This document shows, piece by piece, positions 29,561-43,753 of a stretch of 64,000 nucleotides of DNA. Source of the DNA: Elusimicrobia bacterium GWA2_66_18 (GTDB lineage Bacteria; Elusimicrobiota; Elusimicrobia; UBA1565; UBA9628). Each line of letters starts with the position of its first letter. The stretch's first letter is position 1. The notes below the pieces were generated by a model. The model searched no databases and was not told the origin of the DNA. It saw only the letters and a program-made list of their open reading frames with translations. The DNA lies in contig MGTX01000002.1 in the NCBI GenBank assembly GCA_001799675.1, positions 189,878 to 253,877 of the forward strand. The letters are read 5' to 3'. The translations under genes and the position numbers were made by a program.

Positions 29561-32203
29561 ATGAGCGTCCGGCTCAGCTTCACCATGAAGATCGGGCTCC
29601 TCCTCGCGCTGCCGCTCGTCGGCTCGCTCGTGCCCATCCCCCTGGTCACGCGGTTCCTGGATCGGACCAAGACGGACAGCCACTTCATGAACGTGGCCGG
29701 ACGCCAGAGGATGCTGTCGGCGAGCATGCGCGATTGGGTCAACATGGTGGCCGTCGGCCAAGAGGAGGATCGCTCGGGCCTGCAAGATCGGATCGCGGCC
29801 TTCGATGAGGCGCTCGCCGCGATGGAGCGCGGAGGCTCCGTCCTGGGCGAGACGCTCGCCCCGCCTCCTGTGGAAATCGCAGCCCCTCTGGCCGCGGTAG
29901 GCGGTCTGTGGCGCAGGCTTCAACCGGACTTGGCCGCCATCGCCGAGCGGTCGCGCAAGGAGTTCCGCTTCCAGGCGGCCTACCGCCGCGCCAGGCCGGA
30001 AATGGAGAATCTGCGGGACCTGTCGCACCGGGTCGTCACGGTCTTCGAGGCGAGAAGCAGCCGTCTGCGCGCCGAGCTGCTGATGACGCTTCAAGTCATC
30101 GCGGGGCTGACCGGCCTCATCTTCCTGGCGGGCATCCTGCTCACCCGGCGCTACATCGTCCGGCCCCTCCTGCGCATCCACGCCGCGGCCAGGAGCATCG
30201 GTTCCGGGGACTTCACCCCGCATCTCGAGGTCTCGGCAACGGACGAATTGTCGGATCTCGCCCATGCCTTCAACGAGATGACTTCACGGATCCAGCGCCT
30301 CCTGGCCGCGCTGGACCTGAGCCGCAAGCACGCCGAGATCGTCGTCGCCAGCATGCCCGCGGGTCTTCTCGCCCTGAGCGAAGACCTCCATGTGCTTCGG
30401 GTGAACCGCTCTTTCCGCGAGGCCTTCGGCGTCGACGAGGCGGAACTCGCCCGCCGCCCCACGCTGACGGAACTCCTGCCGGTGGCGGGCCTTAAGGAGG
30501 CGGTCCTCGATGTCCTCTCCACGGGCCTGCCCAAGCGCGGCCTCCAACTGGACCTGGCCGCGAAGGACGGCTCGAAACGGTCCTTGCGGATCTCCATAGC
30601 GGGAACGCGGCTTGAAGAAGACGAACGGCTGGTGGTCGTGGTGGAGGACGTTTCCGAAAGCGAACGGATGAGCCGTGTCGCGACCGAGATGGGACGCCGC
30701 TATCATGAGATCATGGAGAACGCCATCGATGCCATCATCGTCATGGGTCAGGACGGCCGGATCTCCTATCTCAACGGGGCCGCGGAGAAGATGTTCGGCT
30801 ACGCGCGGCCCGAGATGCTGGGGCGGCCGGTCACGATGCTCATGCCGGCGCACTACCGCGAGGCCCACGAACGCGGAGTCCAGCGCTACTTGAGAACGGA
30901 GCAGTCCGTCATTCTGGGCCGCGTGACATTGGTCGACGGCCGGCGCCGCAACGGCGAGACGTTCCCCCTTGAACTGTCGATCAGTTCCTCACGTGCGGAC
31001 GATCAATTCGCGTTCACTGGAATACTCAGGGACGTCACCGAGCGCCGCAGGATCGAGGCGGCCCTGGCCGAGCGGGAGCTTCAGTTGCGCCAAGCTCAGA
31101 AATTGGATGCGGTCGGCAAGCTCGCGGGCGGGATCGCCCACGACTTCAACAATCTGATGACCGCCATCCTGGGATTTAGCGCCTTTCTTCTGCAAAATCT
31201 CAAGCCCGACGATCCGAACCGGGCGGACGTGCTGGGAATCGAGGCCGCGGGCAAGCGCGCGTCCGCCCTCACGAATCAGCTCCTGGCATTCAGCCGCAAG
31301 CAGTTGCTCCAGCCCAGGATCCTGGACCTCAATATCGTGGTTCAAGAGATCCTGAGCATGCTGCGGCGGCTCATCAGAGAGAACATCGAGCTGTCGCTCC
31401 GGCTTTCGGACCAGCCTCTGGTCGTCCGGGCGGACCGGGGGCAGATCGAACAGGTCATCATGAACTTGGTCCTCAACGCCAGGGACGCCATGCCCAAGGG
31501 CGGAAAGATCAGCATCGAGACCTCGGCCATCGAGCTTGGAGACGACCGCGCTCACCCCGGGTCTTACGTGACGCTGACGCTCAGCGACACCGGCGCCGGG
31601 ATGAGCCCGGAAGTGCAGGCGCATCTCTTCGAGCCTTTCTTCACGACCAAGGAGCTGGGCAAGGGGACGGGACTGGGCCTTGCCACGGTCTACGGCATCA
31701 TCGCTCAAAGCGGCGGTCACATCACGGTCGACAGCGAGGAGGGGCATGGATCGATCTTTAGACTCTACCTGCCCAAGGCCGGCGAGCGCTCTGAGAACGG
31801 CAAATCGGCGCCTCCCCAGCGGGATATCCCCCGGGGAGCGGGTGTGGTCCTGCTCGTCGAGGACGAACCCGCCGTCCTGGAGCTGGCGCGCCGCATCTTG
31901 ACGCAGAACGGTTTCACGGTGATCGCCACCGCAGACCCCCTGGAGGCGCTCGCCCTCTGCGAGAGCGAGAAGGAGCCCCTCCGGCTGCTCGTCACCGACA
32001 TGGTCATGCCCAAGCTCAGCGGCCTGGAGGTGGCTCGGCAAGTGCGGGACGCGCGGCCCTCGACCCCGGTGCTCTACATTTCGGGCTACACCGAGCACCC
32101 CGTCCTTCAACTGGACGACGAGGAACTCAAAAGCGCGTTCCTGCAAAAGCCCTTTACGCCGAGCGTCTTCCTGGAAAAAATCCACGAGCTCTTGGGCTCA
32201 TAG
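29561..32203 (+). CDS. Hybrid sensor histidine kinase (PilJ-like sensor, HAMP, two PAS, HisKA, HATPase, receiver)
   Basis: An 880-residue membrane kinase. TM1 is at about 10-30. The periplasmic part includes 'NVAGRQRMLSASM' (44-56), the hallmark of PilJ/NarX-type sensor helices. TM2 (about 174-196) leads into HAMP (about 197-250). Two PAS domains (about 258-368 and 380-495) follow, the second with a FixL-like 'SYLNGAAEKMFGY'. HisKA has H527 in 'GGIAHDFNNLM'; HATPase has N635/N639, 'DTGAGM' and 'GTGLGL'. A C-terminal receiver carries D813. The start at 29561 is chosen because TATAAT lies 7 bases upstream; the long upstream extension is antisense to the neighbouring gene. The PilJ-like sensor near pilus genes suggests surface or twitching-related sensing, but this is inference. 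Confidence 0.92.
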   Translation: MSVRLSFTMKIGLLLALPLVGSLVPIPLVTRFLDRTKTDSHFMNVAGRQRMLSASMRDWVNMVAVGQEEDRSGLQDRIAAFDEALAAMERGGSVLGETLAPPPVEIAAPLAAVGGLWRRLQPDLAAIAERSRKEFRFQAAYRRARPEMENLRDLSHRVVTVFEARSSRLRAELLMTLQVIAGLTGLIFLAGILLTRRYIVRPLLRIHAAARSIGSGDFTPHLEVSATDELSDLAHAFNEMTSRIQRLLAALDLSRKHAEIVVASMPAGLLALSEDLHVLRVNRSFREAFGVDEAELARRPTLTELLPVAGLKEAVLDVLSTGLPKRGLQLDLAAKDGSKRSLRISIAGTRLEEDERLVVVVEDVSESERMSRVATEMGRRYHEIMENAIDAIIVMGQDGRISYLNGAAEKMFGYARPEMLGRPVTMLMPAHYREAHERGVQRYLRTEQSVILGRVTLVDGRRRNGETFPLELSISSSRADDQFAFTGILRDVTERRRIEAALAERELQLRQAQKLDAVGKLAGGIAHDFNNLMTAILGFSAFLLQNLKPDDPNRADVLGIEAAGKRASALTNQLLAFSRKQLLQPRILDLNIVVQEILSMLRRLIRENIELSLRLSDQPLVVRADRGQIEQVIMNLVLNARDAMPKGGKISIETSAIELGDDRAHPGSYVTLTLSDTGAGMSPEVQAHLFEPFFTTKELGKGTGLGLATVYGIIAQSGGHITVDSEEGHGSIFRLYLPKAGERSENGKSAPPQRDIPRGAGVVLLVEDEPAVLELARRILTQNGFTVIATADPLEALALCESEKEPLRLLVTDMVMPKLSGLEVARQVRDARPSTPVLYISGYTEHPVLQLDDEELKSAFLQKPFTPSVFLEKIHELLGS

Positions 32204-32213
32204 CGCGCGAAAA

Positions 32214-32285
32214 AGCCGGGGATGGGATTCGAACCCACAACCTATCGCTTACGAAGCGATTGCTCTACCGTTGAGCTACCCCGGC
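32214..32285 (-). tRNA. tRNA-Thr (anticodon CGT)
   Basis: A 72-base cloverleaf. The acceptor stem is GCCGGGG paired with CCCCGGC, with a D arm GCTC..GAGC. The anticodon stem ATCGC/GCGAT encloses the loop TTCGTAA (anticodon CGT, codon ACG), and the T arm has TTCGAAT. CCA is not encoded. The 5' end directly follows the stop codon of the CheY-like gene on the same strand with no spacer, so it must be processed out of that mRNA. A short T-run follows it. Confidence 0.95.
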
Positions 32286-32651
32286 TCAGATTTTCTTGGC
32301 GGCGATGAGGGCCCGGACGCGCTTGAAATCAAGCGGCTTCTGGAGGAACGTCACCCCCATGAATTGTCGGCGCAGTTTGCCCGTCACATCCTTCTCGGCC
32401 ATGGCGGAGACGAGGAGGACGGGGATGGAGGCCGTGGCCGGATCGTTGCGCAGCTTGTTCAGCACGGCCACGCCGTTGGCGGAGGGCAGGTTGTAGTCCA
32501 GGATGATGAAGTCGGGACGCTTCTCCTGCGCCACCTTGAGTCCCTCCAAGCCATCTTGGGACCAGACGATCTCGTGCCGGTCCTCTTTGAGTTGCTGGCG
32601 CATGATGTTCGCCGCCAGCTCGTCGTCCTCTATTATAAGAACCATTGCCAT
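32286..32651 (-). CDS. Single-domain response regulator (CheY-like)
   Basis: A 121-residue receiver domain: acidic residues E8, D9, D10; phospho-acceptor D52 in 'ILDYNLP'; Ser in 'LLVSAMA'; Lys in 'LQKPLD'. It has no output domain. It lies just downstream of the Cache hybrid kinase on the same strand (32 bases), which probably passes phosphate to it. A second ATG at codon 3 could be the real start. Its stop codon abuts the tRNA-Thr gene. Confidence 0.9.
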   Translation of the reverse strand: MAMVLIIEDDELAANIMRQQLKEDRHEIVWSQDGLEGLKVAQEKRPDFIILDYNLPSANGVAVLNKLRNDPATASIPVLLVSAMAEKDVTGKLRRQFMGVTFLQKPLDFKRVRALIAAKKI

Positions 32652-32683
32652 GCGACTATGGTGTTATTTTTGTCGCCGTGCGG

Positions 32684-34861
32684 TCAAGGTTTCTCGTCCA
32701 GAAGGCGCCGGACGCTCTGGCGCAGGTCGTCGATGTCGAAGGGCTTGACCAGGTATTCGGAACTCGTCGAGTCGAAGAAATCCAAGACCTTCGCGTTGAG
32801 CATGTCTCCGGTCACGAAGAGCATGCGCGTAGACTCCAGGCGCCCCTGCAGCGCCAGTCGCGCGTGGAGGTCCGGCCCTGTGGCGTGCCCCATCGCCATG
32901 TCCGAGACGACGAGGTCGTAGACGTTGCGCTCCAAGAGGGCCAGCGCCTCGCCGCCGTCGCGCGCGATCTCGACGTCGTCGCCGTCCGCCCGCAGCAGGC
33001 GGGCGATGAGCTCCGCGATGTCCTTCTCGTCGTCGGCGACGAGGATGCGCTTGCCGGGCACGGCCGGATACGACGCCGGCTCCTGGACCGCCTCCAGCAG
33101 GTCCAGGTCTTTTTGGGCGGCGATGGGGATTTCCACGCGGAAGACGCTCCCCCGGCCTTCCCCGCTCTCCAAGGAGATGTCGCCGCCGTGCTCTCGCAGG
33201 ATCTGCCGGCAGATGGACAAGCCCAGCCCCGTCCCGCGCCCCGCTTCCTTGGTGGTATAGAACGGCTCGAAGATCTTTTCCTTGATCTCGGGCGCCACGC
33301 CGCCGCCGTTGTCCGAAATCTCGATGAACGCGCGGCGCCCGTCGCTCCCGGTTCTCACCGAGAGCCTCTTGCCCTGCGGGGCGCGGGCCATCTCGCGCAT
33401 GGCGTCGCAGGCGTTGCCGATGAGGTTCACCAGGACCTGAACGACCTGCTGGAAGTCGCCGATGATATCGGGGGGCTCGCTCGAGAGAGCCTTCTCCACT
33501 AGGACGCGCTCGGTCTTGGCGAGGCGGTATTCGAGCAGTTCCAAAGCCGAGTCGACCGCTCTATTCAAATCGACCTTCTTGCGCTCGCGCCCGCTTTGGC
33601 GGACGAAGAACAAAAGATTGTCGACGATCTTGCGGCAGCGGAACACGTTCTGGTAGACCCGCGTCAGGTCCTCCTGCATCTGGGGCGGACAGCCGTCATG
33701 CAGGGCGTTCTGCACGTAGCCCGAGATCGCCTGCAGAGGATTGCTGATCTCGTGAGCGACCGCGGAGATCAACTGTCCCACCGCGGAGAGTTTCTCGGCC
33801 TGGATCAGCTGCGACTGGAGCTGCGTGGTGCGCTCCAGGTTCTGCTCCAGGCGCCGGGCCATCTCGTTGAAAGAATCCGAAAGCGTCCTCAATTCGCCCG
33901 TTCCCTCCTCCTGGATGCGGTGGCCGAAATCGCCCTCGCCGATCTTGCGGGCGGCCGAGACCAGGACGGCGATGGGGCGGGTGATGGAGCGCACGAGAAG
34001 CAGGAGGATCGCGACTAGGACGGCGAGCCCCAGCAGGGAGGTCAGGAGCGCCACGTTCTTGACCTTGCGCAGAGGGCCGAGGAACTCCTCCAGGGGCGCC
34101 TCGACGATGACGGCCCAGGGCCGACGCCTCAGGAGACTCGACGCGACGAGCAGTCCGGAGTCGCCTCCCTCGCGCGGGCGAGCCTCCAGGCGGCGTCCAT
34201 CGGAGGCCTGGACATAGGCCCGACCGCGCCGTCCCATCTCGACGTTCCTCAGCAGGCCGCGCAGCTGCGCAAGATCGTAGCACAGGACCAGGACCCCTTT
34301 GAGCTGCCGGAGTTCGTCATGGACGGGCTTGGAAAAATAGATGACGCTCCCCTCTCCCTCGAGCGCCTCGATGGATGAGGTCCACCACCCGCCGGGGCCG
34401 GCCGCGCGGGCCTTGATGAAATAGTCGGCGCGCGCGTGCGCCGGCCGAGAGGCGAGCGCACGCGAGCGTATCGCGCAGACCTCGCGGCCCCGCCGGTCGA
34501 GATAAAGGATCTGGGCGTAGACGCCGTTGCGGTCGGCGAAGTTGCGCAGGTAGCGCTCGAGTTCTTTGCGATAGGCCTCGGCCTCGTCGTCGAGCTGGAA
34601 ATCGACGTTGCGGTAGTAGTCCGCGATGAGGGGGGTCTCGGCGAGGGTGAACAAGTCGCGGCGGCGCTGGTCGAGGAAGTCGTCGAGTCCGGCGGCCGTG
34701 CGCTGCGCTAGGAACTGCATCTCCTTGTCGACGGCGCTCAGCAGTTCCCGACGCGCCATGCTGTATTGAAGCCAAACGATCACGCTCACTCCCAGGATGA
34801 CGATCGGGAGAATGCTGGCGAGCAGCTTCCACGACAGGCGCGAGGGAAGTCGGAGTCTCAT
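32684..34861 (-). CDS. Hybrid sensor kinase (Cache-type sensor, HAMP, HisKA, HATPase, receiver)
   Basis: A 725-residue protein from the ATG at 34861; a TTG at 34888 would add nine residues before the first membrane helix and is less likely. TM1 is at about 13-31. A periplasmic Cache-like domain (about 40-265, including 'YAQILYLDRRGREVC') follows, then TM2 (about 270-292) and HAMP (about 293-345). HisKA has H370 in 'AVAHEISNPLQ'; HATPase has 'ENxG'-type boxes ('LVNLIGNACDAM', 'DNGGGVAPE', 'GTGLGLSI'). The C-terminal receiver has 'LVVSDMAMGHATG'; the usual Pro after DMxM is missing, so its activity is slightly uncertain. Cache domains bind small organic ligands outside the cell, which fits the solute-binding protein encoded upstream. 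Confidence 0.9.
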   Translation of the reverse strand: MRLRLPSRLSWKLLASILPIVILGVSVIVWLQYSMARRELLSAVDKEMQFLAQRTAAGLDDFLDQRRRDLFTLAETPLIADYYRNVDFQLDDEAEAYRKELERYLRNFADRNGVYAQILYLDRRGREVCAIRSRALASRPAHARADYFIKARAAGPGGWWTSSIEALEGEGSVIYFSKPVHDELRQLKGVLVLCYDLAQLRGLLRNVEMGRRGRAYVQASDGRRLEARPREGGDSGLLVASSLLRRRPWAVIVEAPLEEFLGPLRKVKNVALLTSLLGLAVLVAILLLLVRSITRPIAVLVSAARKIGEGDFGHRIQEEGTGELRTLSDSFNEMARRLEQNLERTTQLQSQLIQAEKLSAVGQLISAVAHEISNPLQAISGYVQNALHDGCPPQMQEDLTRVYQNVFRCRKIVDNLLFFVRQSGRERKKVDLNRAVDSALELLEYRLAKTERVLVEKALSSEPPDIIGDFQQVVQVLVNLIGNACDAMREMARAPQGKRLSVRTGSDGRRAFIEISDNGGGVAPEIKEKIFEPFYTTKEAGRGTGLGLSICRQILREHGGDISLESGEGRGSVFRVEIPIAAQKDLDLLEAVQEPASYPAVPGKRILVADDEKDIAELIARLLRADGDDVEIARDGGEALALLERNVYDLVVSDMAMGHATGPDLHARLALQGRLESTRMLFVTGDMLNAKVLDFFDSTSSEYLVKPFDIDDLRQSVRRLLDEKP

Positions 34862-34894
34862 TTTTTCTGCGGGCCGACGGAGTCGCAAGGGCGA

Positions 34895-35026
34895 TTAGAA
34901 TCGATGGATCAACTGGAGCGTCGTGCGCGACCCCACGAAACGGTTCTGTCCCCAGAACTCGATGGGGTGAGAGAGCATGGCCGTCAGGCCCGGCCCCTGA
35001 TAGGCCAGCAACGCCGCGCGATTCAT
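34895..35026 (-). CDS. 43-residue ORF coupled to the cupin gene; beta-barrel-like tail
   Basis: A short frame starting with ATG at 35026 that overlaps the cupin stop (ATGA) and ends at 34895. The peptide runs from 'MNRAALLAYQGPGLTAML' to 'SRTTLQLIHRF'. Alternating polar and apolar residues and a terminal Phe resemble the last strands of an outer-membrane beta-barrel. It may be a remnant of such a gene or a real small protein. I do not recognise a family. The coupled start supports translation. Confidence 0.4.
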   Translation of the reverse strand: MNRAALLAYQGPGLTAMLSHPIEFWGQNRFVGSRTTLQLIHRF

Positions 35027-35430
35027 GCTCTCTCCAGTTTGATGGCGTCCTTGGCCGCGCGAGCGCCGGTTCCGGCATCCGTCCCCGGGAAAGCGTCGGG
35101 TTTTCTCGGGTCCAGCGGCGGTGAAAAGAGGGACAGCGCCGAGACTCCGCTGCGTCTCGTCACGAATTGATGTTGCATCCCCGGCGGTATCTCGAACATG
35201 TCCCCCGCCCGCAGGCGCGCTCGACGGCCGTCGAGATAGGCCGTGGCCGAACCCTTGAGGACGAACACGAACTCCGAGGTGAAGCGATGATACAGCGCCG
35301 GGGTCGACGAGAAAGGGGGCAGAGCCTCGTGCAGCAGGCAGACGCGGTAGGGTTCGCGCGGCACGGGAAGAAACCGCAGGGTCAAGCCGCCCGCCACGCG
35401 CTCACGGGGCAAGCGGCGCAATGACTGCAT
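35023..35430 (-). CDS. Small cupin-domain protein
   Basis: A 135-residue protein with a single conserved cupin barrel: motif 1 'HRFTSEFVFVLKGSATAYLDG' (shortened relative to the classic HxH, only one early His plus Glu) and motif 2 'LRAGDMFEIPPGMQHQF' with the late metal-ligand His. Such proteins bind a metal and a small organic ligand and act as isomerases, dioxygenases or sugar-binding regulators. The ATG at 35430 follows the solute-binding protein stop by 19 bases. Function cannot be told from the sequence, but it belongs to the same operon as the ThDP enzyme and the Cache kinase. Confidence 0.8.
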   Translation of the reverse strand: MQSLRRLPRERVAGGLTLRFLPVPREPYRVCLLHEALPPFSSTPALYHRFTSEFVFVLKGSATAYLDGRRARLRAGDMFEIPPGMQHQFVTRRSGVSALSLFSPPLDPRKPDAFPGTDAGTGARAAKDAIKLERA

Positions 35431-35449
35431 GCGGGCCGAGCCGGAAGAC

Positions 35450-36955
35450 TTAGCGGTCTTCATGGACCTCGGCGGCGTAGAAATAAGGCATGCCCGTGAC
35501 ATAGGAGTGGAAGTCGACGCCGCGCCTGACGCCGCAGGTCTGCAGGCGCTGATAGGTGAAGATGCTGAGCGCCTCGTCATGGACATAACGGTCCAGCGCG
35601 CGCGCCAAGCGGTCGCGTTCGCTCTCGTCGATGGTCGCGGTCATTTGCTCCAACATCCCGTCGAATTTCTCATCCTTGGCGAGGCTGAAGGGCGATTTGG
35701 AATAGATGACGAGCGCCTGGAGGAAGTAGCTGTGCGCCATGGTGTCGGGGACGTCCCCGACGGCGAGATCGAAAATGGGATTGCTGAAATAGGCGCCCAA
35801 CTGGCTCTCGGTCATGGTCGAGATGTGGAAGCGCACGCCGATATCCTGCAGATTCGCCGCGATGATCTTGGCCGGTCGCAGGGCGTTCTCGTTGACCATT
35901 GCGCTGAGCTCGAAACCATGCGGATACCCCGCGCGCTTGAGCAGCGCCTTCGCCTTTTGGGGATCATAAGGATACGGCTTCAGCTCCGGGTCGTGCCCGG
36001 GCTCGCCCGGCATGCTCAAGGTCGCGATAGGAATCCCGTTGCCCAGGAGGTCATATCTGATCAGGGAATCCTTGTCCACGCCGTAGTTGAGCGCCCGGCG
36101 GACGTCGCGGCTGCCGAGAGGGCCGCGATTGAAGCGCAGGGACGGCGCGAGCGTGTAGAATATCTTCGCCTTGAGCACTTTGGTGTCGCGCCGGGCCTGA
36201 ACGGCCTGCGTTTGAGTGCCGGGCACATCGAAGAGCAGATTGATCTCTCCGTTGAAGAGCGCCTCGATTTGACGGGGCTTTTCGATGAACGCAAACACGA
36301 GCTGATCGATCTTCGGATATCCGCTCATCCAATACTCGCGATTGGCGTCCAGCACGATCCTGCGGCTGAGATCCCGACTTCCGAAGCGAAACGCCCCGGT
36401 GCCCACCGGCTCGCGCGCGAAGCGTTCTTCCCCGACCTCGCCGAGGTAGCGGGGAGGAACGATCAACAAGCCCCACGCCAGCCGGTTGAGCAGCAGGCCG
36501 TCCGGGCGCGTGGTCTCGATGTCGATGGTCTGCGTGTCGATGACCGAGACTTTCCCGATGGAGTCGAACAACCCCCGTCCGGGGAATCCGGTTTTCGGGT
36601 CGAGCAACCGCGAGATCGAGAAGCGGGCGGCCTGCGCGTCGAAGGGCTCGCCGTTGTGGAATCGCACCCCTTTGCGCAGTTGGAAGCGGACCTTGAGCGG
36701 GCTGAGGCGCTCCCACGAGACGGCCAGCGCCGGCTCGACTCGGCCTTCGGGATCAAAACGGACGAGACCCTCGAAAATCTGCTGGTTGATGATGTGGTTC
36801 TTCTGCGAAAACTCCTTGTGCGCGTCAAGCGTGGGCGGAGGCGCGACGTCGTTGCAGACGATGAGACGCTTCGGCCGATGCGCGGCCGCCGCGTCCTGCC
36901 GCGACAAGACGAGTCCAAGCGCCGCCGGCAGAAGAACGCAGCGGCCGATCTTCAT
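35450..36955 (-). CDS. Periplasmic solute-binding protein, family 5 (Dpp/Opp-type), without a transporter
   Basis: A 501-residue protein. It has a signal peptide of about 23 residues ending 'DAAAA', then a family-5 extracellular binding fold ('PALAVSWERLSPLKVRFQLRKGVRFHNGEPFDA', 'RRALNYGVDKDSLI', 'YPYDPQKAKALLKRAGYPHG'). The family binds peptides, nickel, glutathione or oligosaccharides for ABC import. No permease or ATPase gene lies nearby, so it may serve a distant transporter or hand a ligand to the Cache kinase encoded two genes downstream. The start at 36955 begins a proper signal peptide; 10 bases separate it from the ThDP enzyme stop. A CATAAT box upstream could be its own promoter. 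Confidence 0.88.
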   Translation of the reverse strand: MKIGRCVLLPAALGLVLSRQDAAAAHRPKRLIVCNDVAPPPTLDAHKEFSQKNHIINQQIFEGLVRFDPEGRVEPALAVSWERLSPLKVRFQLRKGVRFHNGEPFDAQAARFSISRLLDPKTGFPGRGLFDSIGKVSVIDTQTIDIETTRPDGLLLNRLAWGLLIVPPRYLGEVGEERFAREPVGTGAFRFGSRDLSRRIVLDANREYWMSGYPKIDQLVFAFIEKPRQIEALFNGEINLLFDVPGTQTQAVQARRDTKVLKAKIFYTLAPSLRFNRGPLGSRDVRRALNYGVDKDSLIRYDLLGNGIPIATLSMPGEPGHDPELKPYPYDPQKAKALLKRAGYPHGFELSAMVNENALRPAKIIAANLQDIGVRFHISTMTESQLGAYFSNPIFDLAVGDVPDTMAHSYFLQALVIYSKSPFSLAKDEKFDGMLEQMTATIDESERDRLARALDRYVHDEALSIFTYQRLQTCGVRRGVDFHSYVTGMPYFYAAEVHEDR

Positions 36956-36965
36956 ATCGCCGCTA

Positions 36966-38750
36966 TTATGCCTTATTAAAAAACCGCTCCAGCGTCTCGA
37001 TCCGGACGGCCGCGGGAGGGCAGGCGTTCGCGTCGATGCGGGCGTCGATGACGGTCGGGCGGTCGGCCGCCAGGCCCATGCGGATGAACTTTTCAACTTC
37101 GCCGGGACGCTCCGCCTTGAAGGCCAGCGCCCCGAGGGCCTCGGCCATCTTGACGATGTCGAGCGGCCGGCGGAAGAGGCCGGTGTTGAACTTGCCCTTG
37201 AACTGCCGGGTCTCGCCCAGATGGACCATGCCGAATCCGCCGTTGTTCAAGACCACCCAGATGACCGGGATGTCGTTTTCAACGGCGGTGTGGACTTCCA
37301 TGCCGTTCATGGCGAAGGCCCCGTCGCCGACCAGCGCGGCCACGGGGCGATGCGGCGCGGCCAGCTTGCCGCCGATCGCGGCGGCCACCCCGTGGCCCAT
37401 GGAACCGAAGCCCATGTTGATGAAGAAACTCCCCGGCAGGCGGACCTCGAAATAATGGATGGCCCAAGCCATGACGTTGCCGATGTCGACGAAGAGGACG
37501 GCGTCGTCGGGCAGTGCCCGGCGCATCTCTGTGACGACGCGCTGAGGCTTCAAGGGGAGCGAGACGTCGTCCATGCTGCCCGCGTCGATGAAGCGGGGAT
37601 GCGTCCGCTTCACGTCCTGCACCGCGATCAGACGAGCGGCGAGATCCGGCCCCGGGTCCATTCGTTGGACCTCGCGCTCAAGCTGAAAGCCGATCTCCAT
37701 GATGATCCGCTTCGCGTCGCCCACCAGCCCCACCCTCGCCGGATAGTTCCTCCCGATCTCGGTCGGGTCGACGTCGATCTGCAGCAGGGAGCGGCCCTGG
37801 GCCAAGCGCGGGTCCCACGCGTGGGTGGAGGCCTCGCCCAGGCTGCTGCCGACGACCAAGAGGAGGTCCGTTTCGCCGGAGAGCAGGATCGCGTCGGCCT
37901 GAGGCGAGCCGGCCAGGCCGAAGACGCCCAGCGAAAGGGGATGGTCCTCCGGGAAAACGCCCTTGGCCTTCGGCGTCGTCGCCACGGGGATGGCGAGGCG
38001 CTCGGCCAGAGTCCTCAGCTCCTTGTAAGCCCGCGCAAGGTGGACCCCGTAGCCGGCCAGGATGGCGGGCCGGCGCGCGGCGAGGAGGAGATGCGCCGCC
38101 TCGCGCACGCTGTGGCGGTCGAAGAGTTCGGGCTGCGGACGGTACTGCTCGGGACGCCACACGTCATCGGCCACGGGGCGCTTCATCATGTCGGCGGGAA
38201 CGTTGAGGTGGATGGGGCCCGGCCGTCCGGTGAGGCTTCTTCGCAGCAGGAAACGCGTCATGTCGCCCATTTTCCCGGGAGCGACGAGCATGAGGCTGCA
38301 TTTGGTGACGGCTCTGTAGAGCTCCACGATATCGATGCCCAGAGGAGAGCTTTCCTGCGCCGCCGCCTTGCCGAACGCCGCCGTGGCGACCTGGGCGGTC
38401 ACGATCAAGACCGGCACCGAGTCGCGGTGGGCGCAGGCGATCGCGGTCAGGGCATTGGTGGCTCCGGGGCCCGCCGTCGTGCAGCAGAGCCCCAGGCGCC
38501 CGCTCACCCGGGCGTAGCCGTCCGCCATGAACGCCGCGCCCTCCTCATGCTTGGCGATGATCGGGCGGATCCGTCCGCTCTCGAAGAGCGCCTCATACAG
38601 CGGCATCAAGGGACCCCCGGGGAGGCCGAAGATGCACTGCGATCCTTCCGCCTCCAGATATTTGAGCAGAAGGCCGACGGCCGTGATCGCGACGGCTGGA
38701 GCGCTGGGGGCTTCCGGGCGATCCAGCACGGCCGTCCGCATCGGGTTCAT
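36966..38750 (-). CDS. Acetolactate synthase-like ThDP-dependent enzyme
   Basis: A 594-residue member of the acetohydroxyacid synthase/glyoxylate carboligase/sulfoacetaldehyde acetyltransferase superfamily. The N-terminal pyrimidine-binding domain has the catalytic Glu in 'AKHEEGAAFMADGYAR'. The central domain has FAD/nucleotide-fold features, and the C-terminal pyrophosphate-binding motif is 'GDGAFAMNGMEVHTAVENDIPVIW..NN'. All key residues for activity are present. No small regulatory subunit (ilvN) and no other ilv genes are nearby, so it is unlikely to be the housekeeping enzyme. It is coupled (ATGA) to the HTH-receiver gene upstream, placing its expression under a signal-transduction regulator. 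The substrate is unknown. Confidence 0.85.
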   Translation of the reverse strand: MNPMRTAVLDRPEAPSAPAVAITAVGLLLKYLEAEGSQCIFGLPGGPLMPLYEALFESGRIRPIIAKHEEGAAFMADGYARVSGRLGLCCTTAGPGATNALTAIACAHRDSVPVLIVTAQVATAAFGKAAAQESSPLGIDIVELYRAVTKCSLMLVAPGKMGDMTRFLLRRSLTGRPGPIHLNVPADMMKRPVADDVWRPEQYRPQPELFDRHSVREAAHLLLAARRPAILAGYGVHLARAYKELRTLAERLAIPVATTPKAKGVFPEDHPLSLGVFGLAGSPQADAILLSGETDLLLVVGSSLGEASTHAWDPRLAQGRSLLQIDVDPTEIGRNYPARVGLVGDAKRIIMEIGFQLEREVQRMDPGPDLAARLIAVQDVKRTHPRFIDAGSMDDVSLPLKPQRVVTEMRRALPDDAVLFVDIGNVMAWAIHYFEVRLPGSFFINMGFGSMGHGVAAAIGGKLAAPHRPVAALVGDGAFAMNGMEVHTAVENDIPVIWVVLNNGGFGMVHLGETRQFKGKFNTGLFRRPLDIVKMAEALGALAFKAERPGEVEKFIRMGLAADRPTVIDARIDANACPPAAVRIETLERFFNKA

Positions 38751-39337
38751 CGGCGCGCGAAGACTCCCTGCTCCAGCTTCAGCAGTTCCGCGGCTTTGGC
38801 GAGGAGTTCGTCGTGGTCCAAGGGCTTGCGGAAGAAGGCGTCGACCTTGACCTCGGCGAGCTTCTTTTCGGTCGAAGGAGTGTTCCTGCCGGAGATGGCG
38901 ATGACCTTGATGCCTCGGGTCTCGGGCTTTGTTTTCAGCACGCGACAGACCTGGACGCCGTCCATCTTCGGCAGCACGACGTCGAGGATCACCAGATCCG
39001 GCGGCTGCTGGCCGATGCGGATCAAGGCCTCTATGCCGTCATGGCAGACCTCCGTCTGGAAAAGCTTGGGAGGACGACCGAAGGCCCCCTCGAGGACCCG
39101 CGCGACCTCCACGTCGTCGTCTACGATCAGAACCCTCATTAGGGACGAGAGTTCGGAAGGCAGCGCGATTCGCAGGCGCTGGAGGAACACGGCGAGGTCT
39201 TCCCTGGTCACGCGGTGATGCCCGCCCACCGTCTGATAGGATCGCAGCTCGCCGTCGTTGATCCACTTGGCCACGCTCGATGGATACACGTCGCAGAACC
39301 GGGCGATGTCATGGGTCGTATAGGTCTTCTCTGGCAT
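38747..39337 (-). CDS. Excisionase/MerR-type HTH domain fused to a receiver domain
   Basis: A 196-residue regulator. Residues 5-53 form a MerR/excisionase/BldC-like winged helix ('YTTHDIARFCDVYPSSVAKWI', 'GGHHRVTREDL'). Residues 67-190 are a receiver with D73-D75, phospho-acceptor D119 in 'ILDVVLP', Ser and Lys ('FFRKPLD'). The DNA-binding part precedes the receiver, the reverse of most response regulators. Three perfect-length 9-bp direct repeats lie in its own leader, consistent with autoregulation by a BldC-like protein that oligomerises on direct repeats. It heads the operon of ThDP enzyme, solute-binding protein, cupin and Cache kinase. Confidence 0.9.
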   Translation of the reverse strand: MPEKTYTTHDIARFCDVYPSSVAKWINDGELRSYQTVGGHHRVTREDLAVFLQRLRIALPSELSSLMRVLIVDDDVEVARVLEGAFGRPPKLFQTEVCHDGIEALIRIGQQPPDLVILDVVLPKMDGVQVCRVLKTKPETRGIKVIAISGRNTPSTEKKLAEVKVDAFFRKPLDHDELLAKAAELLKLEQGVFARR

Positions 39338-39344
39338 GGATGTT

Positions 39345-39371
39345 CTCTTTACTCCTTTTACTCTCTTTACT
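39345..39371 (-). promoter_or_regulatory. Three tandem 9-bp direct repeats (putative operator)
   Basis: Plus-strand reading: CTCTTTACT, CCTTTTACT, CTCTTTACT at 39345-39353, 39354-39362 and 39363-39371, back to back. They occupy the leader between the -10 box (39387-39382) and the start codon (39337) of the HTH-receiver gene and also contain its AAAGGAG ribosome site. This is a likely binding site for the encoded HTH protein, so binding could block both transcription and translation. Confidence 0.6.
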
Positions 39372-39381
39372 GCGTTTGCTG

Positions 39382-39410
39382 ACTATACCTTGTTCGGGCG
39401 TCGCCGTCAA
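39382..39410 (-). promoter_or_regulatory. Promoter of the HTH-receiver/ThDP operon
   Basis: Minus strand: TTGACG (39410-39405), a 17-base spacer, TATAGT (39387-39382). The leader to the ATG at 39337 is about 40 bases and contains the three 9-bp repeats. The -35 region lies back to back with the divergent promoter at 39423. Confidence 0.65.
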
Positions 39411-39422
39411 CCGTAAATTGCG

Positions 39423-39428
39423 TATAAT
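39423..39428 (+). promoter_or_regulatory. Leaderless -10 box of the winged-helix response regulator
   Basis: TATAAT ends 7 bases before the ATG at 39436, so the start codon is at the expected transcription start. This fixes the true start and rejects an upstream in-frame start at 39280 that would read through the divergent promoter region. Confidence 0.5.
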
Positions 39429-39435
39429 CACGCCC

Positions 39436-40131
39436 ATGGAACGACAGAGGGTGCTGGCCGTCGACGACGACGAGGAGATGCGCCGTTTCTATGAGAGATT
39501 CTTCCTCTGTCTCCAAAACGAGGGCTTCACGGCGACGGTCGTGCCGGACGCGGAGCAAGCCCTGGGCCTGCTGGCCCTCGATCCGGTGGACATCGTCGTC
39601 CTCGATTGGGGCCTGCCGGGCATCTCGGGCGCCGGCCTCGCCAAGGCCCTGCGCGCCAGCGCCAAGACCCGCTCGGTGGGAATCCTCATGGTCACCGGCC
39701 GATCCTCTCCCGCCGAGACGGTCCTCGCCCTGGAGTCGGGAGCCGACGACCATCTCGCCAAGCCCTTCGACGAGAAGGTCCTTCTTGCGCGCCTGCGCAG
39801 CCTGGCGCGGCGGCGCGCGCTGACCTTCGACTCGCATCTGGTGAGCCGCTTCCCGGGACTGGAACTCGACCAGGAGGCCGATCTCCTGCGCGTGGACGGA
39901 CGCCTCGTCCGGCTGACGCCCAAGGAGATGTGCCTTTTCAAGATATTCCTGCGCAGGCCGAATATGCTCCACTCCCGCGTCTATCTCTGGGAAGCGGCCT
40001 GGGGCTACGAGGCCGAACGCTGGGACCACCTCATCGACGCGACGATCTCATCCCTGCGCCGCAAACTCGGCCCCCGCTGGGGGACGAGCCTCAAGGCTCA
40101 CAAGGGCGCGGGCTACGCCCTGGAGATATAG
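39436..40131 (+). CDS. OmpR/PhoB-family winged-helix response regulator
   Basis: A 231-residue protein: receiver with D10-D12, phospho-acceptor D57 in 'VLDWGLPG', Thr in 'LMVTGRS' and Lys in 'LAKPFDE'. A C-terminal winged helix follows ('LVRLTPKEMCLFKIFLRRPN', 'DHLIDATISSLRRKLG', 'KGAGYAL'). It is a DNA-binding regulator, probably paired with the PAS histidine kinase 65 bases downstream. It is divergent from the HTH-receiver operon. Its stop codon TAG is the first part of a copy of the AGGAGTGTGTCCGAG repeat. Confidence 0.93.
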   Translation: MERQRVLAVDDDEEMRRFYERFFLCLQNEGFTATVVPDAEQALGLLALDPVDIVVLDWGLPGISGAGLAKALRASAKTRSVGILMVTGRSSPAETVLALESGADDHLAKPFDEKVLLARLRSLARRRALTFDSHLVSRFPGLELDQEADLLRVDGRLVRLTPKEMCLFKIFLRRPNMLHSRVYLWEAAWGYEAERWDHLIDATISSLRRKLGPRWGTSLKAHKGAGYALEI

Positions 40132-40144
40132 GAGTGTGTCCGAG
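40130..40144 (+). repeat. Copy of the AGGAGTGTGTCCGAG repeat end
   Basis: These 15 bases are identical to the outer end of both arms of the 8468-8624 palindrome. As there, the copy overlaps the 3' end of a gene (the TAG of the response regulator). The following sequence differs, and no inverted partner is seen before the next gene. Confidence 0.7.
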
Positions 40145-40196
40145 GTCTCCGAGGTTCCTTTGAGGTTCGGGGGTTACCCTATTGGGGAGGACTACG

Positions 40197-41288
40197 ATGA
40201 CGCCCATGCCTCCCCCGCAGAAGAAGGCCGGCCAAAACGCAGAGGGCCTCCCGGACCCCGAGCGGCTCTTAGCGCTCTCCTCGGACATGCTCGGCGTCAT
40301 GGGCTTCGACGGACTCCTCCGGACGGTCAACCCCGCCTGGCAATGCACCCTGGGCCGCGCTCCCGGCGAACTCCTCGGCAGACCGCTGCTCGATCTAGTC
40401 CATCCGGAGGACCGAGAGAACGTCCAAGAGACCCTCAGGAAGCTCTCGAGCGTCGAGGGCGGAGAGACCTGCTTGGTCAACCGCTGTCTCTGCCGGGACG
40501 GCAAACTGAAATGGCTCCTCTGGCGCCTGACGGCCTCTCCCGCGATGGGGCTCTATTACCTCGCCGCCAGCGACATCACGCCGCAGAAGGCCCTCCATGT
40601 GAAGCTGCTCCGCTTGCAGATGGACTCGCAGATCGGACGCATCCTGGCCGGAGTGGCGCATGACTTCAACAACATCCTCTCCGTCATCGGCGGCTGCGCC
40701 GTCATGATGGCCGCGGATCGCGAGATGAGCGCTCAGCAGGCCCGCGATCTGGAGGACATCACCAACGCGGCGCAGCGGGGCGCCGAGCTCGTCCGGGTCA
40801 TGATCGACCTTTGCCGTCCCGAGGGCGCCGGCGAGCGGCGCGACTCGGACCTCAACGAGGTCGTGCTCCGCATGGAGCGGCTGCTGCGCCTTCTGCTCCG
40901 CAAGAATATCCGCCTGTCCGTCAGCCTCGCCGAAGGGCTGGGACGCGTCAGGCTCGACTCCGGACGTCTGGATCAGATCCTGTTGAACCTCGTCGTCAAC
41001 GCCCGGGACGCCATGCCCGATGGAGGGAGCATCACGCTCAAGACGCTCCCGGCCGAGGCGGGCGCTCGTCTCGTCGTCCGCGACACGGGAGTCGGCATCC
41101 CGCCGGACGTCCAAGCCCGCATGTTCGAGCCTTTCTTCACCACGAAGCCCCGGGGGAAGGGGACGGGACTGGGGCTGTCGACGATCCAGGAGATCCTCGC
41201 GCACTGCGGCGGGAAGATCTCCGTCTCCAGCCGCCCGGGCGAGGGCGCGACGCTGGAACTGTTCCTTCCCCGGGCCGACGCCCGCTGA
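40197..41288 (+). CDS. PAS-domain sensor histidine kinase
   Basis: A 363-residue soluble kinase: PAS domain (about 22-128, 'VMGFDGLLRTVNPAWQCTLG', 'LLDLVHPEDRE'), HisKA with H155 in 'GVAHDFNNILS', and HATPase with N-box 'LLNLVVNARDAM', 'DTGVGIPP' and 'GTGLGLST'. It is of the NtrB/hybrid-like class. The ATG at 40197 is chosen because GGGGAGG lies 6 bases upstream (40184-40190); a TTG at 40182 is less likely. It probably signals to the response regulator just upstream. It converges with livF with one base between the stop codons. Confidence 0.92.
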   Translation: MTPMPPPQKKAGQNAEGLPDPERLLALSSDMLGVMGFDGLLRTVNPAWQCTLGRAPGELLGRPLLDLVHPEDRENVQETLRKLSSVEGGETCLVNRCLCRDGKLKWLLWRLTASPAMGLYYLAASDITPQKALHVKLLRLQMDSQIGRILAGVAHDFNNILSVIGGCAVMMAADREMSAQQARDLEDITNAAQRGAELVRVMIDLCRPEGAGERRDSDLNEVVLRMERLLRLLLRKNIRLSVSLAEGLGRVRLDSGRLDQILLNLVVNARDAMPDGGSITLKTLPAEAGARLVVRDTGVGIPPDVQARMFEPFFTTKPRGKGTGLGLSTIQEILAHCGGKISVSSRPGEGATLELFLPRADAR

Positions 41289-41289: not shown

Positions 41290-42018
41290 TCAGTCCAGGC
41301 CGAGGTAAGCCTTGCGCACGGCGGGGTCCTTGAGGAGAGTCGCGGCGTCCTGCGCGACCGCGACCATCCCGGTCTCCAGCACATAGGCGCGCGCGGCGGC
41401 GCGCAGCGCGCGCTTGGCGTTCTGCTCGACGAGGAGGACGGTCACGCCTTCTTTGTTGATAAGCCCGATGATCTCGAAGATCTTATCGACCACCACGGGC
41501 GCCAGGCCCATGGAGGGCTCGTCGAGCATCAGGAGCTTGGGCGCGGCCATCAACGCGCGGCCCATGGCCAGCATCTGCTGTTCGCCGCCCGAGAGGGTTC
41601 CGCCCAGCTGGCAGCGGCGCTTGCCGAGGACCGGGAAGAGGTGGAAGACGTGGTCGTACTCGCGGGACAGGTCCTTCTCGCTCCGGCAGAAAGCGCCCAT
41701 CTCGAGGTTCTCCATCACGCTCAGGCGCGGGAATATGCGCCGTCCTTCAGGGACCAGCGAAAGCCCCATGCGCATGATCCGGTGGGGCGGCAGTCCGGCG
41801 AGGTCTCGGCCCTGAAAGGTCACCCTCCCCTTCTCGGGCTTGAGCAGGCCCGCGATGATCTTCATCATAGTGGTCTTGCCCGCGCCGTTGTTGCCGATGA
41901 GGGCGACGACCTCGCCCGCGCGGACTTCGAGGCTCACGCCCTTGAGCGCGCGGATCTTCTTGCCGTAGATTGCGTGGACATCGTCGAGCGAGAGCATCGC
42001 GGGGGCCTTCTCGCTCAC
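41290..42018 (-). CDS. livF: Branched-chain amino acid ABC transporter ATP-binding protein LivF
   Basis: A 242-residue ABC ATPase: Walker A 'GNNGAGKTT', Q-loop region, signature 'LSGGEQQMLAMGRAL', Walker B 'LLMLDEPSMGLAP' and H-loop 'LLVEQN'. The LivF subtype is shown by 'SLVPEGRRIFPRLSVMENLEMGA'. With LivG it powers import of leucine, isoleucine, valine or related ligands. The GTG start overlaps the livG stop (GTGA). It is the last gene of the liv operon. Confidence 0.93.
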   Translation of the reverse strand: MSEKAPAMLSLDDVHAIYGKKIRALKGVSLEVRAGEVVALIGNNGAGKTTMMKIIAGLLKPEKGRVTFQGRDLAGLPPHRIMRMGLSLVPEGRRIFPRLSVMENLEMGAFCRSEKDLSREYDHVFHLFPVLGKRRCQLGGTLSGGEQQMLAMGRALMAAPKLLMLDEPSMGLAPVVVDKIFEIIGLINKEGVTVLLVEQNAKRALRAAARAYVLETGMVAVAQDAATLLKDPAVRKAYLGLD

Positions 42019-42794
42019 GCGCCCTCCCGGCCCAGGTAGGCCTCGATGACGCGCGCGTCTGCGACCACTTGGCGCGGCTTGCCCTCGGCGATCTTGACGC
42101 CGTAGTCGAAGACGAAGACGCGATCGGAAATGTCCATGACGACCCTCATCTGGTGCTCGATGAGGAGGACCGTCACCCCCCGCTCGCGCACCCGCCGCGC
42201 CAAGGCGACAAGGTCCGAGCATTCCGTCTGGTTCATGCCCGCCGTCGGCTCATCGAGGATGAGGAGCTTCGGTTCGCTGGCCAGGGCCCGGGCGACCTCG
42301 AGCTTGCGCTGGGCCCCGTAGGGCAGGTTCTTGGCAAGCTCGTTGCCAAGCGCGCGCAGGCCGACGAAGTCCAGAAACTCCTTGGCCAGGGACTCGACGG
42401 CGCTCTCTTCCTCCCGGTATGCCCGCGTGCGCAGCAGCGGGCCCAGAAGGAACTGGCTCGTGCGCGAGTGGCGGCCGACCATCACGTTCTCGAGCGCGGT
42501 CATGCACGAGAAGAGGCGGATGTTCTGGAAGGTGCGCGCCACGCCTCGGGCCACGATATCGTGGCTGGGCAGGCCGCGGATCGGCCGGCCTTCAAAGAGG
42601 ATGTCGCCGCGCGTGCCCGGGTAGACGCCGGTCAGCACGTTGAAGAAGGTCGTCTTGCCGGCGCCGTTGGGCCCGATGACGCTGACGATCTCCCCCTCGT
42701 GGATGGAGAGGTTGACCGAGTCGACGGCCTTCAAGCCGCCGAAGTGCTGGGCAAGGTCGCGGACCTCCAGCAGGGCCGGTCCTGGGCCGGTCAT
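42015..42794 (-). CDS. livG: Branched-chain amino acid ABC transporter ATP-binding protein LivG
   Basis: A 259-residue ABC ATPase: Walker A 'GPNGAGKTTFFN', signature 'LPYGAQRKLEVARAL' (the LivG form of LSGGQ), Walker B 'LLILDEPTAGMN' and 'LLIEHQMRVVM'. The phrase 'GVARTFQNIRLF' is typical of LivG. The ATG at 42794 overlaps the livM stop (ATGA). It pairs with LivF as the heterodimeric motor. Confidence 0.93.
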   Translation of the reverse strand: MTGPGPALLEVRDLAQHFGGLKAVDSVNLSIHEGEIVSVIGPNGAGKTTFFNVLTGVYPGTRGDILFEGRPIRGLPSHDIVARGVARTFQNIRLFSCMTALENVMVGRHSRTSQFLLGPLLRTRAYREEESAVESLAKEFLDFVGLRALGNELAKNLPYGAQRKLEVARALASEPKLLILDEPTAGMNQTECSDLVALARRVRERGVTVLLIEHQMRVVMDISDRVFVFDYGVKIAEGKPRQVVADARVIEAYLGREGA

Positions 42795-43753
42795 GAGGAG
42801 AGTTCCGACTCGCGCCGCGCCGAAGGCAGCAGGCCCTGCGGACGGAACAAGGTCGCCAACACCAGGATGAGGCCGAAGAAGAGGTAGCGGTAGTTGATCC
42901 ACTCGGCCGAAAGGGTCCACTGCATGAGCGGCGGCAAGCCCACCAGGATCAGCGCCCCCAGGAGCACGCCCGCAATGGAGCCCATGCCGCCCAGGACCAC
43001 GATGGAGACGACCAGGACGGACTCCCAGAACACGAAAGACTCGGGGGTGACGAACTGCTCCCACAGCGCGAAGAGGGCGCCGGCCAGTCCCGCAAAGGCC
43101 GCCGAGAGGGTGAAGGCCAGGAGCTTGTACTCCCGGACCGGGATGCCTGACAGGCGGGCGGCGACCTCGTCTTCGCGGATGGCGACCCAGGCCCGGCCCA
43201 CGCGGGAGGACTCTATGCGCCGGGACGCGACGACGGCCAAGGAGACGCCCGCGAGGATCAGGAGGTAGTATTGGACGTTGGGGTCCGGGGAAATGCAGGC
43301 GAGAGGCCGCCAGGGACGCACCTGCATGCCCTTGGGGCCGTTGGTCAGTGAGTCGAGGTTGTTGATGACCAAGCGCGCGATCTCCCCGAATCCCATGGTG
43401 ACCACGGCGAGGTAGTCTCCGCGCAGGCGCAGGATGGTCAGGCCGAGCAGGGCGCGCATGGCCAGGGTGATGGCGACCGCCAGGACGATGGCCAGCGGAG
43501 CCGGGACATGGGCGCGCATGGCGATGGCCGTGGTGTAGGCCCCGATGGCGTAAAAAGAGATGAAGCCCAGGTCGAAGAGCCCCGCGTAGCCCAGGGTGAA
43601 GTTGAGCCCGAGGCCCAGGATCATGAAGAGCCCGATCACGCCCGCCACGCGCACGAGGTAGGGCTGCTCGACCGCCTGGGCCAGGAACGGGAATGCGGCG
43701 GCCGCCGCGAGGGCGGCCCCGAGCGCCCAGCGCGAACCCAGGAGCTTCTTCAT
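42791..43753 (-). CDS. livM: Branched-chain amino acid ABC transporter permease LivM
   Basis: A 320-residue membrane protein with about nine hydrophobic helices and the LivM signature segments 'LGLGLNFTLGYAGLFDLGFISFYAIGAY', 'ALGLTILRLRGDYLAVVTMGFGEI' (in variant form) and 'GPKGM'. It forms the translocation pore with LivH. It begins directly after the livH stop codon (TAA then ATG). Confidence 0.93.
   Translation of the reverse strand: MKKLLGSRWALGAALAAAAAFPFLAQAVEQPYLVRVAGVIGLFMILGLGLNFTLGYAGLFDLGFISFYAIGAYTTAIAMRAHVPAPLAIVLAVAITLAMRALLGLTILRLRGDYLAVVTMGFGEIARLVINNLDSLTNGPKGMQVRPWRPLACISPDPNVQYYLLILAGVSLAVVASRRIESSRVGRAWVAIREDEVAARLSGIPVREYKLLAFTLSAAFAGLAGALFALWEQFVTPESFVFWESVLVVSIVVLGGMGSIAGVLLGALILVGLPPLMQWTLSAEWINYRYLFFGLILVLATLFRPQGLLPSARRESELSS

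What the first reader, a model, noticed from the sequence alone, without database searches (positions are those of the whole stretch)
32214..39337. Candidate new sensory-metabolic unit: HTH-receiver, ThDP carboligase, orphan binding protein, cupin, small ORF, Cache hybrid kinase, CheY
All genes are on one strand with overlaps or gaps under 70 bases. A signal-responsive regulator is translationally coupled to an acetolactate-synthase-like enzyme with an intact active site but no IlvN partner. A family-5 binding protein has no transporter nearby, a cupin could bind a small metabolite, and a Cache kinase senses extracellular ligands. One reading: the binding protein presents a ligand to the kinase, whose phosphate flows to the receivers and controls the enzyme operon. 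I know no described system with this set.
Basis: inference. Interest (0 to 1): 0.7.

Follow-up and report, generated by a model that had tools for sequence, protein, structure and literature searches.

The report
Kinase-controlled small-molecule operon of Elusimicrobiota
In environmental Elusimicrobiota bacteria, a sensor kinase and its probable DNA-binding partner frame a conserved operon that appears to make and bind an unknown small molecule, using an enzyme that databases often label as amino-acid biosynthesis.

Summary
The unit is real. In relatives whose contigs reach far enough, the HTH-receiver lies within 10 kb of the ThDP enzyme in 26 of 28, the family-5 binding protein in 27 of 27, the cupin in 21 of 25, the Cache sensor in 19 of 22. 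(1) Of 27 relatives, 20 also carry an O-methyltransferase, not found in the window. (2) The 'small ORF' is the C-terminal relic of an outer-membrane channel gene (Phenol_MetA_deg), full-length in some relatives. (3) The HTH is MerR/BldC-like; a near-consensus promoter and four 9-bp direct repeats, the BldC site size, lie at 39410-39344, and repeat class goes with recognition-helix class. Among solved enzymes the ThDP protein is closest to BbmA, not acetolactate synthase; this genome shows no IlvN or IlvC. Distances suggest two sets: HTH-receiver plus kinase; enzyme, methyltransferase, binding protein plus cupin (a looser set). This supports a cognate kinase-regulator pair driving a make-and-bind module and gives no support to the binding protein as the kinase's dedicated partner. 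The molecule is unknown.

The parts
39382..39410 (-). sigma-70-like promoter TTGACG-17-TATAGT; the only promoter-like site found in 32100-39600
   Evidence: 1 found, 0.7 expected in shuffles, so not significant alone; such a site, 9 of 12 matches or more, is upstream in 25 of 26 loci against 36 of 372 control genes
39344..39379 (-). operator-like array of four 9-bp direct repeats (GCAAACGCA GTAAAGAGA GTAAAAGGA GTAAAGAGA) just downstream of the -10
   Evidence: elsewhere in this genome the pattern was found once exactly, inside a receiver gene, and once with a mismatch (context not examined)
38747..39337 (-). response regulator: N-terminal MerR/BldC-like HTH_17 plus C-terminal receiver (Asp119)
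   Evidence: Pfam; HTH matches 8jbs, then BldC chains 6ama/6amk; Asp position
36966..38750 (-). BbmA-like ThDP enzyme (Glu69, Gly475-Asp476, Asn502, Gly512 invariant in 19 sequences)
   Evidence: roles of the residues recalled
35450..36955 (-). family-5 solute-binding protein; signal-peptide-like start (my reading); no permease gene recognised nearby
35023..35430 (-). small cupin with invariant His48, Glu53, His87 in 19 sequences
34895..35026 (-). relic: last ~37 codons of a Phenol_MetA_deg outer-membrane channel gene (match 34898-35008)
   Evidence: 92% aa over 37, 83% nt over 106; full-length gene in relatives
32684..34861 (-). hybrid histidine kinase dCache-HAMP-HisKA-HATPase-receiver
   Evidence: Pfam; sensor model pLDDT 82.5
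32286..32651 (-). stand-alone CheY-like receiver, co-directional but not conserved in the unit
   Evidence: absent after the kinase in 17 of 17 other loci where the next gene was called
32213..32286 (-). tRNA-Thr (CGT), directly at the CheY stop
   Evidence: ARAGORN

Best explanation
A conserved Elusimicrobiota operon in which a cognate pair, a dCache hybrid kinase and a MerR/BldC-type HTH-receiver, controls a module that makes and binds a small molecule. Shown by sequence: the gene set and its conservation; the promoter with 9-bp repeats; the match of repeat class and recognition-helix class; the enzyme's distance from acetolactate synthase; the joint inheritance of kinase sensor and HTH-receiver; and a looser joint inheritance of enzyme, methyltransferase, binding protein and cupin. 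Inferred: the HTH-receiver binds the repeats head-to-tail as BldC does, at or just downstream of the -10, so that binding blocks transcription and the phosphorylation state sets it. The ThDP enzyme joins two carbonyl compounds into an acyloin-type product (alpha-hydroxyketone or alpha-hydroxy-beta-keto acid). Where the methyltransferase is present the product is O-methylated. It crosses the outer membrane through the Phenol_MetA_deg channel where that gene is kept, and the binding protein holds it (or its precursor) in the periplasm. The kinase probably senses a cue that does not change when the enzyme type is swapped. In the window the methyltransferase is missing and the channel is a relic, so the local product is probably the unmethylated form or the module is partly decayed.
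For: Conservation: of 58 genomes searched 31 including this one hold the enzyme at 47% identity or more; neighbours. Of 55 loci with more distant enzymes, not titled Elusimicrobia, none shows the HTH-receiver or sensor and one (L103) has a binding protein 3 kb away; some of these contigs are short. Regulation: best lag-9 score mean 15.85 of 27 in 33 upstream regions; 9.4-11.6 at lags 4-8 and 10-15; 10.98 at lag 9 in 371 control regions; promoter in 25 of 26 against 36 of 372; helix and repeat classes; BldC protomer binds 9 bp. Two inheritance sets. Enzyme. Methyltransferase and channel. Binding protein.
Against: No substrate, product or phosphotransfer is known. BbmA's reaction comes from no call; the acyloin chemistry is inferred from family. 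The window's own copy lacks the methyltransferase and has only a relic of the channel, so it may be decaying. A binding protein without permease could still use the genome's single Opp/Dpp-type transporter. The core is not one tight block: ThDP and SBP correlate at only 0.34, 0.085 in a first run and 0.41 on p-distances, close to SBP-sensor 0.38. All pairs, across sets too, are positive and beyond permutation (p 0.0007-0.013), so the split is one of degree. Repeats score under 18 in 18 of 33 upstream regions. The match of helix and repeat classes was judged by eye and follows relatedness too. The best solved match of the HTH is 8jbs, a cobalamin-binding protein, not BldC.
Confidence: 0.58

Rival explanations
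1. Closed cell-cell signalling loop: the enzyme's product is an autoinducer, caught by the binding protein, which reports it to the dCache kinase, which adjusts the operon (LuxPQ-like logic with a co-encoded synthase).
For: Synthase, receptor-like binding protein without permease, kinase and a probably autoregulated response regulator in one operon. Alpha-hydroxyketones are known autoinducers (CqsA/LqsA type, recalled). Top structural matches of the binding protein, all tied, include AapF solved with the signal HEHEAA.
Against: Binding protein and enzyme distances track the kinase sensor weakly (SBP-sensor 0.07 tree, 0.38 p-distance; ThDP-sensor 0.17 and 0.40), whereas kinase sensor and HTH-receiver track each other (0.80, 0.85). 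A specific receptor should change with its ligand.
Confidence: 0.2
2. Inducible catabolic operon: the channel and binding protein collect an environmental aromatic or keto compound, the ThDP enzyme cleaves or decarboxylates it, and the kinase senses the substrate.
For: Phenol_MetA_deg channel family, binding protein and a ThDP enzyme (such enzymes also act as lyases and decarboxylases, recalled); the kinase sensor does not follow the enzyme type.
Against: No permease or further catabolic enzyme was recognised in the unit; an O-methyltransferase in 20 of 27 loci fits synthesis better than breakdown.
Confidence: 0.15
3. Misplaced branched-chain amino acid gene: the enzyme is an acetolactate synthase working without IlvN.
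For: Named acetolactate synthase by one source for many relatives; 388.9 bits to TIGR00118.
Against: Below the curated cut-off of 538; IlvC over cut-off in 5 of 58 genomes, of which only G052 holds the cassette, and that genome has a separate IlvB-IlvN-IlvC set; GARFDDR of acetolactate synthase I replaced by GSSLGE.
Confidence: 0.04

Closest known systems
BldC family regulators (Streptomyces BldC)
   Same: HTH sequence match to BldC chains 6ama/6amk; 9-bp direct repeats, the site size bound by one BldC protomer
   Different: here the HTH is fused to a receiver with its Asp and sits at the promoter of an operon that encodes a kinase; the HTH of 8jbs matches slightly better
BbmA (PDB 8x3x, ThDP enzyme)
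   Same: closest solved enzyme, 624 bits against 254 for acetolactate synthase I; the Gly changed in entry BbmA-G484F is invariant in the 19 family sequences aligned
   Different: operon, product and organism of BbmA were not found in the paper library
LuxP-LuxQ (and other binding-protein/kinase pairs; recalled)
   Same: periplasmic binding protein encoded with a periplasmic-sensor hybrid kinase
   Different: family-5 binding protein; only weak co-variation of binding protein and sensor; a candidate synthase in the same operon
AapF-type signal-binding proteins
   Different: 22% identity; ligand here unknown
Acetolactate synthase IlvBN
   Same: ThDP fold and catalytic residues
   Different: no IlvN or IlvC match in this genome, below curated cut-off, altered motifs

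Membership tests
Acetolactate synthase (IlvB) | score above curated cut-off of TIGR00118 (538.35 bits) | tested here: not met
   388.9 bits; no cassette enzyme listed reaches it
Acetolactate synthase (IlvB) | regulatory subunit IlvN and pathway enzyme IlvC in the genome | tested here: not met
   0 matches of TIGR00119 and TIGR00465 in this 94.7% complete genome
Acetolactate synthase (IlvB) | GARFDDR motif | tested here: not met
   aligned residues are GSSLGE; role of the motif recalled
BldC family | winged HTH of BldC type rather than another MerR-like type | tested here: inconclusive
   E 0.00018 to 6ama, but 1.6e-05 to 8jbs, a cobalamin-binding protein; PF12728 above cut-off
BldC family | 9-bp direct repeats at the target promoter | tested here: met
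   paper passages. Binding itself not testable here
BldC family | small protein that is only a winged HTH | tested here: not met
   fused to a receiver; so it may work like BldC but is a response regulator
Dpp/Opp transporter binding protein | permease and ATPase genes adjacent | tested here: not met
   none recognised among the genes 29561-41288
Dpp/Opp transporter binding protein | groups with binding proteins next to the genome's OppC | tested here: not met
   48 of 48 cassette sequences (some genomes twice) form one clade (support 0.79) apart from 9 other proteins of this genome
Two-component pair | kinase and receiver with intact domains, inherited together | tested here: met
   phosphotransfer not testable
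LuxPQ-like binding-protein sensing | binding protein physically engages the kinase sensor | not testable with these tools
   only indirect: no strong co-variation
Quorum-sensing system | diffusible product sensed by the producer | not testable with these tools
   no product known

The most novel reading that the evidence does not exclude
Elusimicrobiota have their own chemical communication system: a ThDP enzyme makes an acyloin-type signal, in many relatives O-methylated, a family-5 binding protein receives it, and a fixed kinase/BldC-type-receiver frame runs an operon whose enzyme and receptor genes are exchanged as strain-specific cargo.
Probability: 0.2. Interest if true: 0.85.

Novelty: new variant of a known kind. 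Interest (0 to 1): 0.6.

Why it matters
A gene set whose enzyme is often labelled acetolactate synthase, beside an orphan transporter part, turns out to be a conserved operon with its own kinase in a little-cultured phylum. It gives a defined enzyme to assay for an unknown metabolite, a response regulator with a predicted operator that can be tested by one footprint, and a natural series of loci in which regulators stay and cargo seems to be swapped.

Tried and rejected
Rejected: chance grouping; acetolactate synthase; small ORF as a peptide signal, since it matches the channel's C-terminus; CheY as a unit member; a tRNA-linked insertion, since of 25 relative loci scanned none has a tRNA at the kinase end (the only two hits, in L053 and L074, lie elsewhere); a second exact repeat site at contig C2:25802, since it lies inside a receiver gene.

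Led nowhere, all seen as search listings only: papers on BbmA (130 papers matched the word beginning, 20 listed, none relevant by title), BbmA/CsmA/carboligase (0), PDB codes (0), ThDP enzymes with alpha-hydroxy-beta-keto acids (one review listed, not read), Elusimicrobia with these genes (0; 7, none relevant by title), quorum sensing with acyloin and thiamine diphosphate (1), AapF (1, the AlphaFold 3 paper), LuxPQ-type pairs (2). Mirror-tree: the first run (16 taxa, tree distances) gave HTH-receiver-sensor 0.84 and all pairs with ThDP or SBP 0.005-0.145, also ThDP-SBP 0.085; partial SBP-sensor correlation -0.11 to -0.23. The second and the p-distance run show the two sets, with higher between-set values. 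LuxQ was not among the 50 rows shown for the sensor model, which does not exclude it.
Full report
What is there. The window lies in a 2.79 Mb, 94.7% complete genome. Its named relatives are MAGs titled Elusimicrobia, Elusimicrobiales or Elusimicrobiota, many from groundwater. On the minus strand, a promoter-like site (39410-39382) precedes HTH-receiver, ThDP enzyme, family-5 binding protein, cupin, a 43-codon ORF, a dCache hybrid kinase and a stand-alone receiver, closed by tRNA-Thr. Gaps are -4 to 33 bases.

Conservation. Of 58 genomes searched, 34 match the enzyme at E 1e-60; 31 of these (own included) are the cassette type (47% identity or more), and three (G049, G050, G002) match only at 33-36%. 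I fetched longer regions for the 30 relatives and scored them with profiles built from their own genes. Counting presence within 10 kb on either strand, only for loci whose contig reaches far enough: HTH-receiver 26 of 28, binding protein 27 of 27, methyltransferase 20 of 27, cupin 21 of 25, channel 3 of 21, Cache sensor 19 of 22. In 25 named Elusimicrobia loci, partly the same genomes: 23 of 23, 24 of 24, 16 of 25, 18 of 23, 4 of 19, 18 of 19. Of the other 55 loci of that scan, with more distant enzymes and some on short contigs, none shows the HTH-receiver or sensor and one has a binding protein (L103). In the protein collection 1729 relatives reach E 1e-100 and the best 120 are listed; those with an organism name are Elusimicrobia or Elusimicrobiota except one at 70% identity named Proteobacteria (P0028), whose neighbourhood I did not see. 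In an even draw of 149 genomes of the phylum, 7 including this one hold the enzyme at E 1e-140; of the 20 genomes listed without it 13 are 1.4-1.7 Mb, and 122 more are not listed. So the unit is conserved within a part of the phylum, probably its larger-genome, environmental members (inference).

The gene between enzyme and binding protein in many relatives is an O-methyltransferase (PF00891 with PF08100); no match to it is left in the window at E 0.01. The small ORF equals the last 37 residues of a Phenol_MetA_deg outer-membrane channel (92% identity; 83% in DNA over 106 bases), which is full-length in L041/L076 (one genome), L033, L031, L062, L064 and L088. Some relatives add further methyltransferases (L037, L088), one of another family (L039), an SDR (L032) or a B12 radical-SAM enzyme (L062), which looks like variable tailoring.

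The enzyme. The best solved match is BbmA, 624 bits, against 254 for acetolactate synthase I; with the family profile 768 against 383. Glu69, Gly475-Asp476 and Asn502 (catalytic or cofactor roles recalled) are invariant in 19 sequences, as is Gly512, the residue changed in the BbmA-G484F entry. The acetolactate synthase I motif GARFDDR reads GSSLGE. IlvB over cut-off occurs in 5 of 58 genomes, IlvN in 4, IlvC in the same 5; only one of these, G052, has the cassette, and there the true set lies on another contig. The window's genome has no IlvN and no IlvC match. What BbmA makes is not stated in any call, so the product class is inference.

The regulator and its operator. The HTH matches 8jbs (cobalamin-binding protein, E 1.6e-05) and then the BldC structures 6ama and 6amk (E 0.0002-0.0003). 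In the BldC paper (PMC5859096; passages seen) each protomer binds a 9-bp direct repeat, head-to-tail. In 33 upstream regions (32 cassette regulators and the paralogue L061) the best lag-9 self-match averages 15.85 of 27; lags 4-8 and 10-15 average 9.4-11.6; 371 other upstream regions average 10.98 at lag 9. A score of 18 or more occurs in 15 of 33 against 6 of 371. So 18 of 33 fall short, for example L062 and L071, where no array is visible. The regions are related, so they are not 33 independent tests. A promoter-like site with 9 or more of 12 consensus matches lies in the 130 bases upstream in 25 of 26 loci, against 36 of 372 control genes (31 of 150 with at least 60 bases of upstream spacing); the repeats lie just after its -10 or overlap it. 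In the window alone the promoter scan is not significant (1 found, 0.7 expected). Among 34 regulators compared by eye, helix PSSV goes mostly with GYAAACGAA-type repeats (AGYAATCAT in L037 and L040, a GAA type in L058), FHTTV with TTACAA-type and AHTTV with CTAACA-type, with several loci lacking a clear array; the classes also follow relatedness, which was not controlled. Where the regulator gene is not next to the enzyme, arrays stand before the enzyme gene in L050 (18), L088 (17) and L074 (16), but not in L031, L042, L064, L069 or L078 (10-13). In this genome the repeat pattern with up to one mismatch gives five matches: three overlapping ones at this promoter, one exact inside a receiver gene, one with a mismatch on contig 12; the backwards control gave one.

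Two inheritance sets. Tree distances (13-28 taxa a pair): HTH-receiver with sensor 0.80; enzyme-methyltransferase 0.72, binding protein-cupin 0.69, methyltransferase-binding protein 0.66, methyltransferase-cupin 0.62, enzyme-cupin 0.57, enzyme-binding protein 0.34; across sets 0.07-0.17, with the methyltransferase 0.37-0.46. On p-distances: 0.85 and 0.41-0.86 within; 0.25-0.46 across, 0.59-0.66 for methyltransferase pairs; in one fixed set of 16 taxa 0.85, 0.60-0.72 and 0.27-0.39. Every pair is beyond permutation (p 0.0007-0.013), so the split is one of degree, and enzyme-binding protein (0.41) hardly exceeds binding protein-sensor (0.38) over all taxa. The first run showed the regulator set (0.84) but no core set. 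The window's HTH-receiver is 0.59-0.67 identical to its own genus and up to 0.66 outside it; its sensor 0.53-0.61 against 0.51 outside; its enzyme is nearer to G052 of another family (0.66) than to its genus (0.49-0.59). The simplest reading is a fixed regulator frame with exchanged cargo. It favours a cognate kinase-regulator pair and gives no support to the binding protein as dedicated kinase partner.

Binding protein. The model is good (pLDDT 91); closest chains are GbpA, AapF with its signal, YliB and DppA, all tied, so fold does not name the ligand. It is separate from the genome's other nine family-5 proteins. The genome has one OppC_N match, with two such proteins beside it. Seven of the 31 cassette genomes show no OppC_N match (G010, G014, G016, G027, G042, G045, G053), three of them at least 90% complete. 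Sharing the Opp transporter is therefore possible here but perhaps not general.

Verdict. A real, conserved and apparently undescribed operon; 'undescribed' rests on the paper searches in an open-licence library, seen as listings. Its regulatory half is well supported by sequence, its chemistry is open.

Noticed in passing
window 39451-41288 (+): Divergent OmpR-type regulator and PAS kinase share the short promoter region with the unit; a divergent receiver gene sits there in 8 of 9 same-genus loci whose upstream side was held.
   Followed up: partly
window 32213-32286 (-): tRNA-Thr(CGT) begins where the CheY gene stops, with no spacer; no tRNA at this place in 25 relative loci scanned.
   Followed up: partly
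L061:9512-10090 (own contig C13): Second HTH-receiver with the FHTTV helix class, beside genes that I read as glutamine-synthetase-like and Mrp-like; a match at 34-37% identity occurs in 14 of 18 same-genus relatives.
   Followed up: no
L056:9057-9962: Two pieces of a second binding-protein copy directly after the cupin.
   Followed up: no
L034 and L041/L076: Local inversions inside the unit: L034 has binding protein, cupin and methyltransferase turned round; L041/L076 has the cupin turned round.
   Followed up: no
own genome; window 41290-45814 (-): No IlvB over cut-off, no IlvN or IlvC match, while a gene set that I read as a LivKHMGF transporter lies next door: probably takes up branched-chain amino acids.
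   Followed up: partly
L083, L084: Enzyme relatives at 48% and 44% in a Myxococcales MAG and an unclassified MAG; L083 has no cassette neighbours in 21.7 kb.
   Followed up: no
window 29561-32203 (+): PilJ-PAS hybrid kinase converging on the unit, part of a signalling-dense genome (74 matches to the HTH-receiver protein; domains).
   Followed up: no
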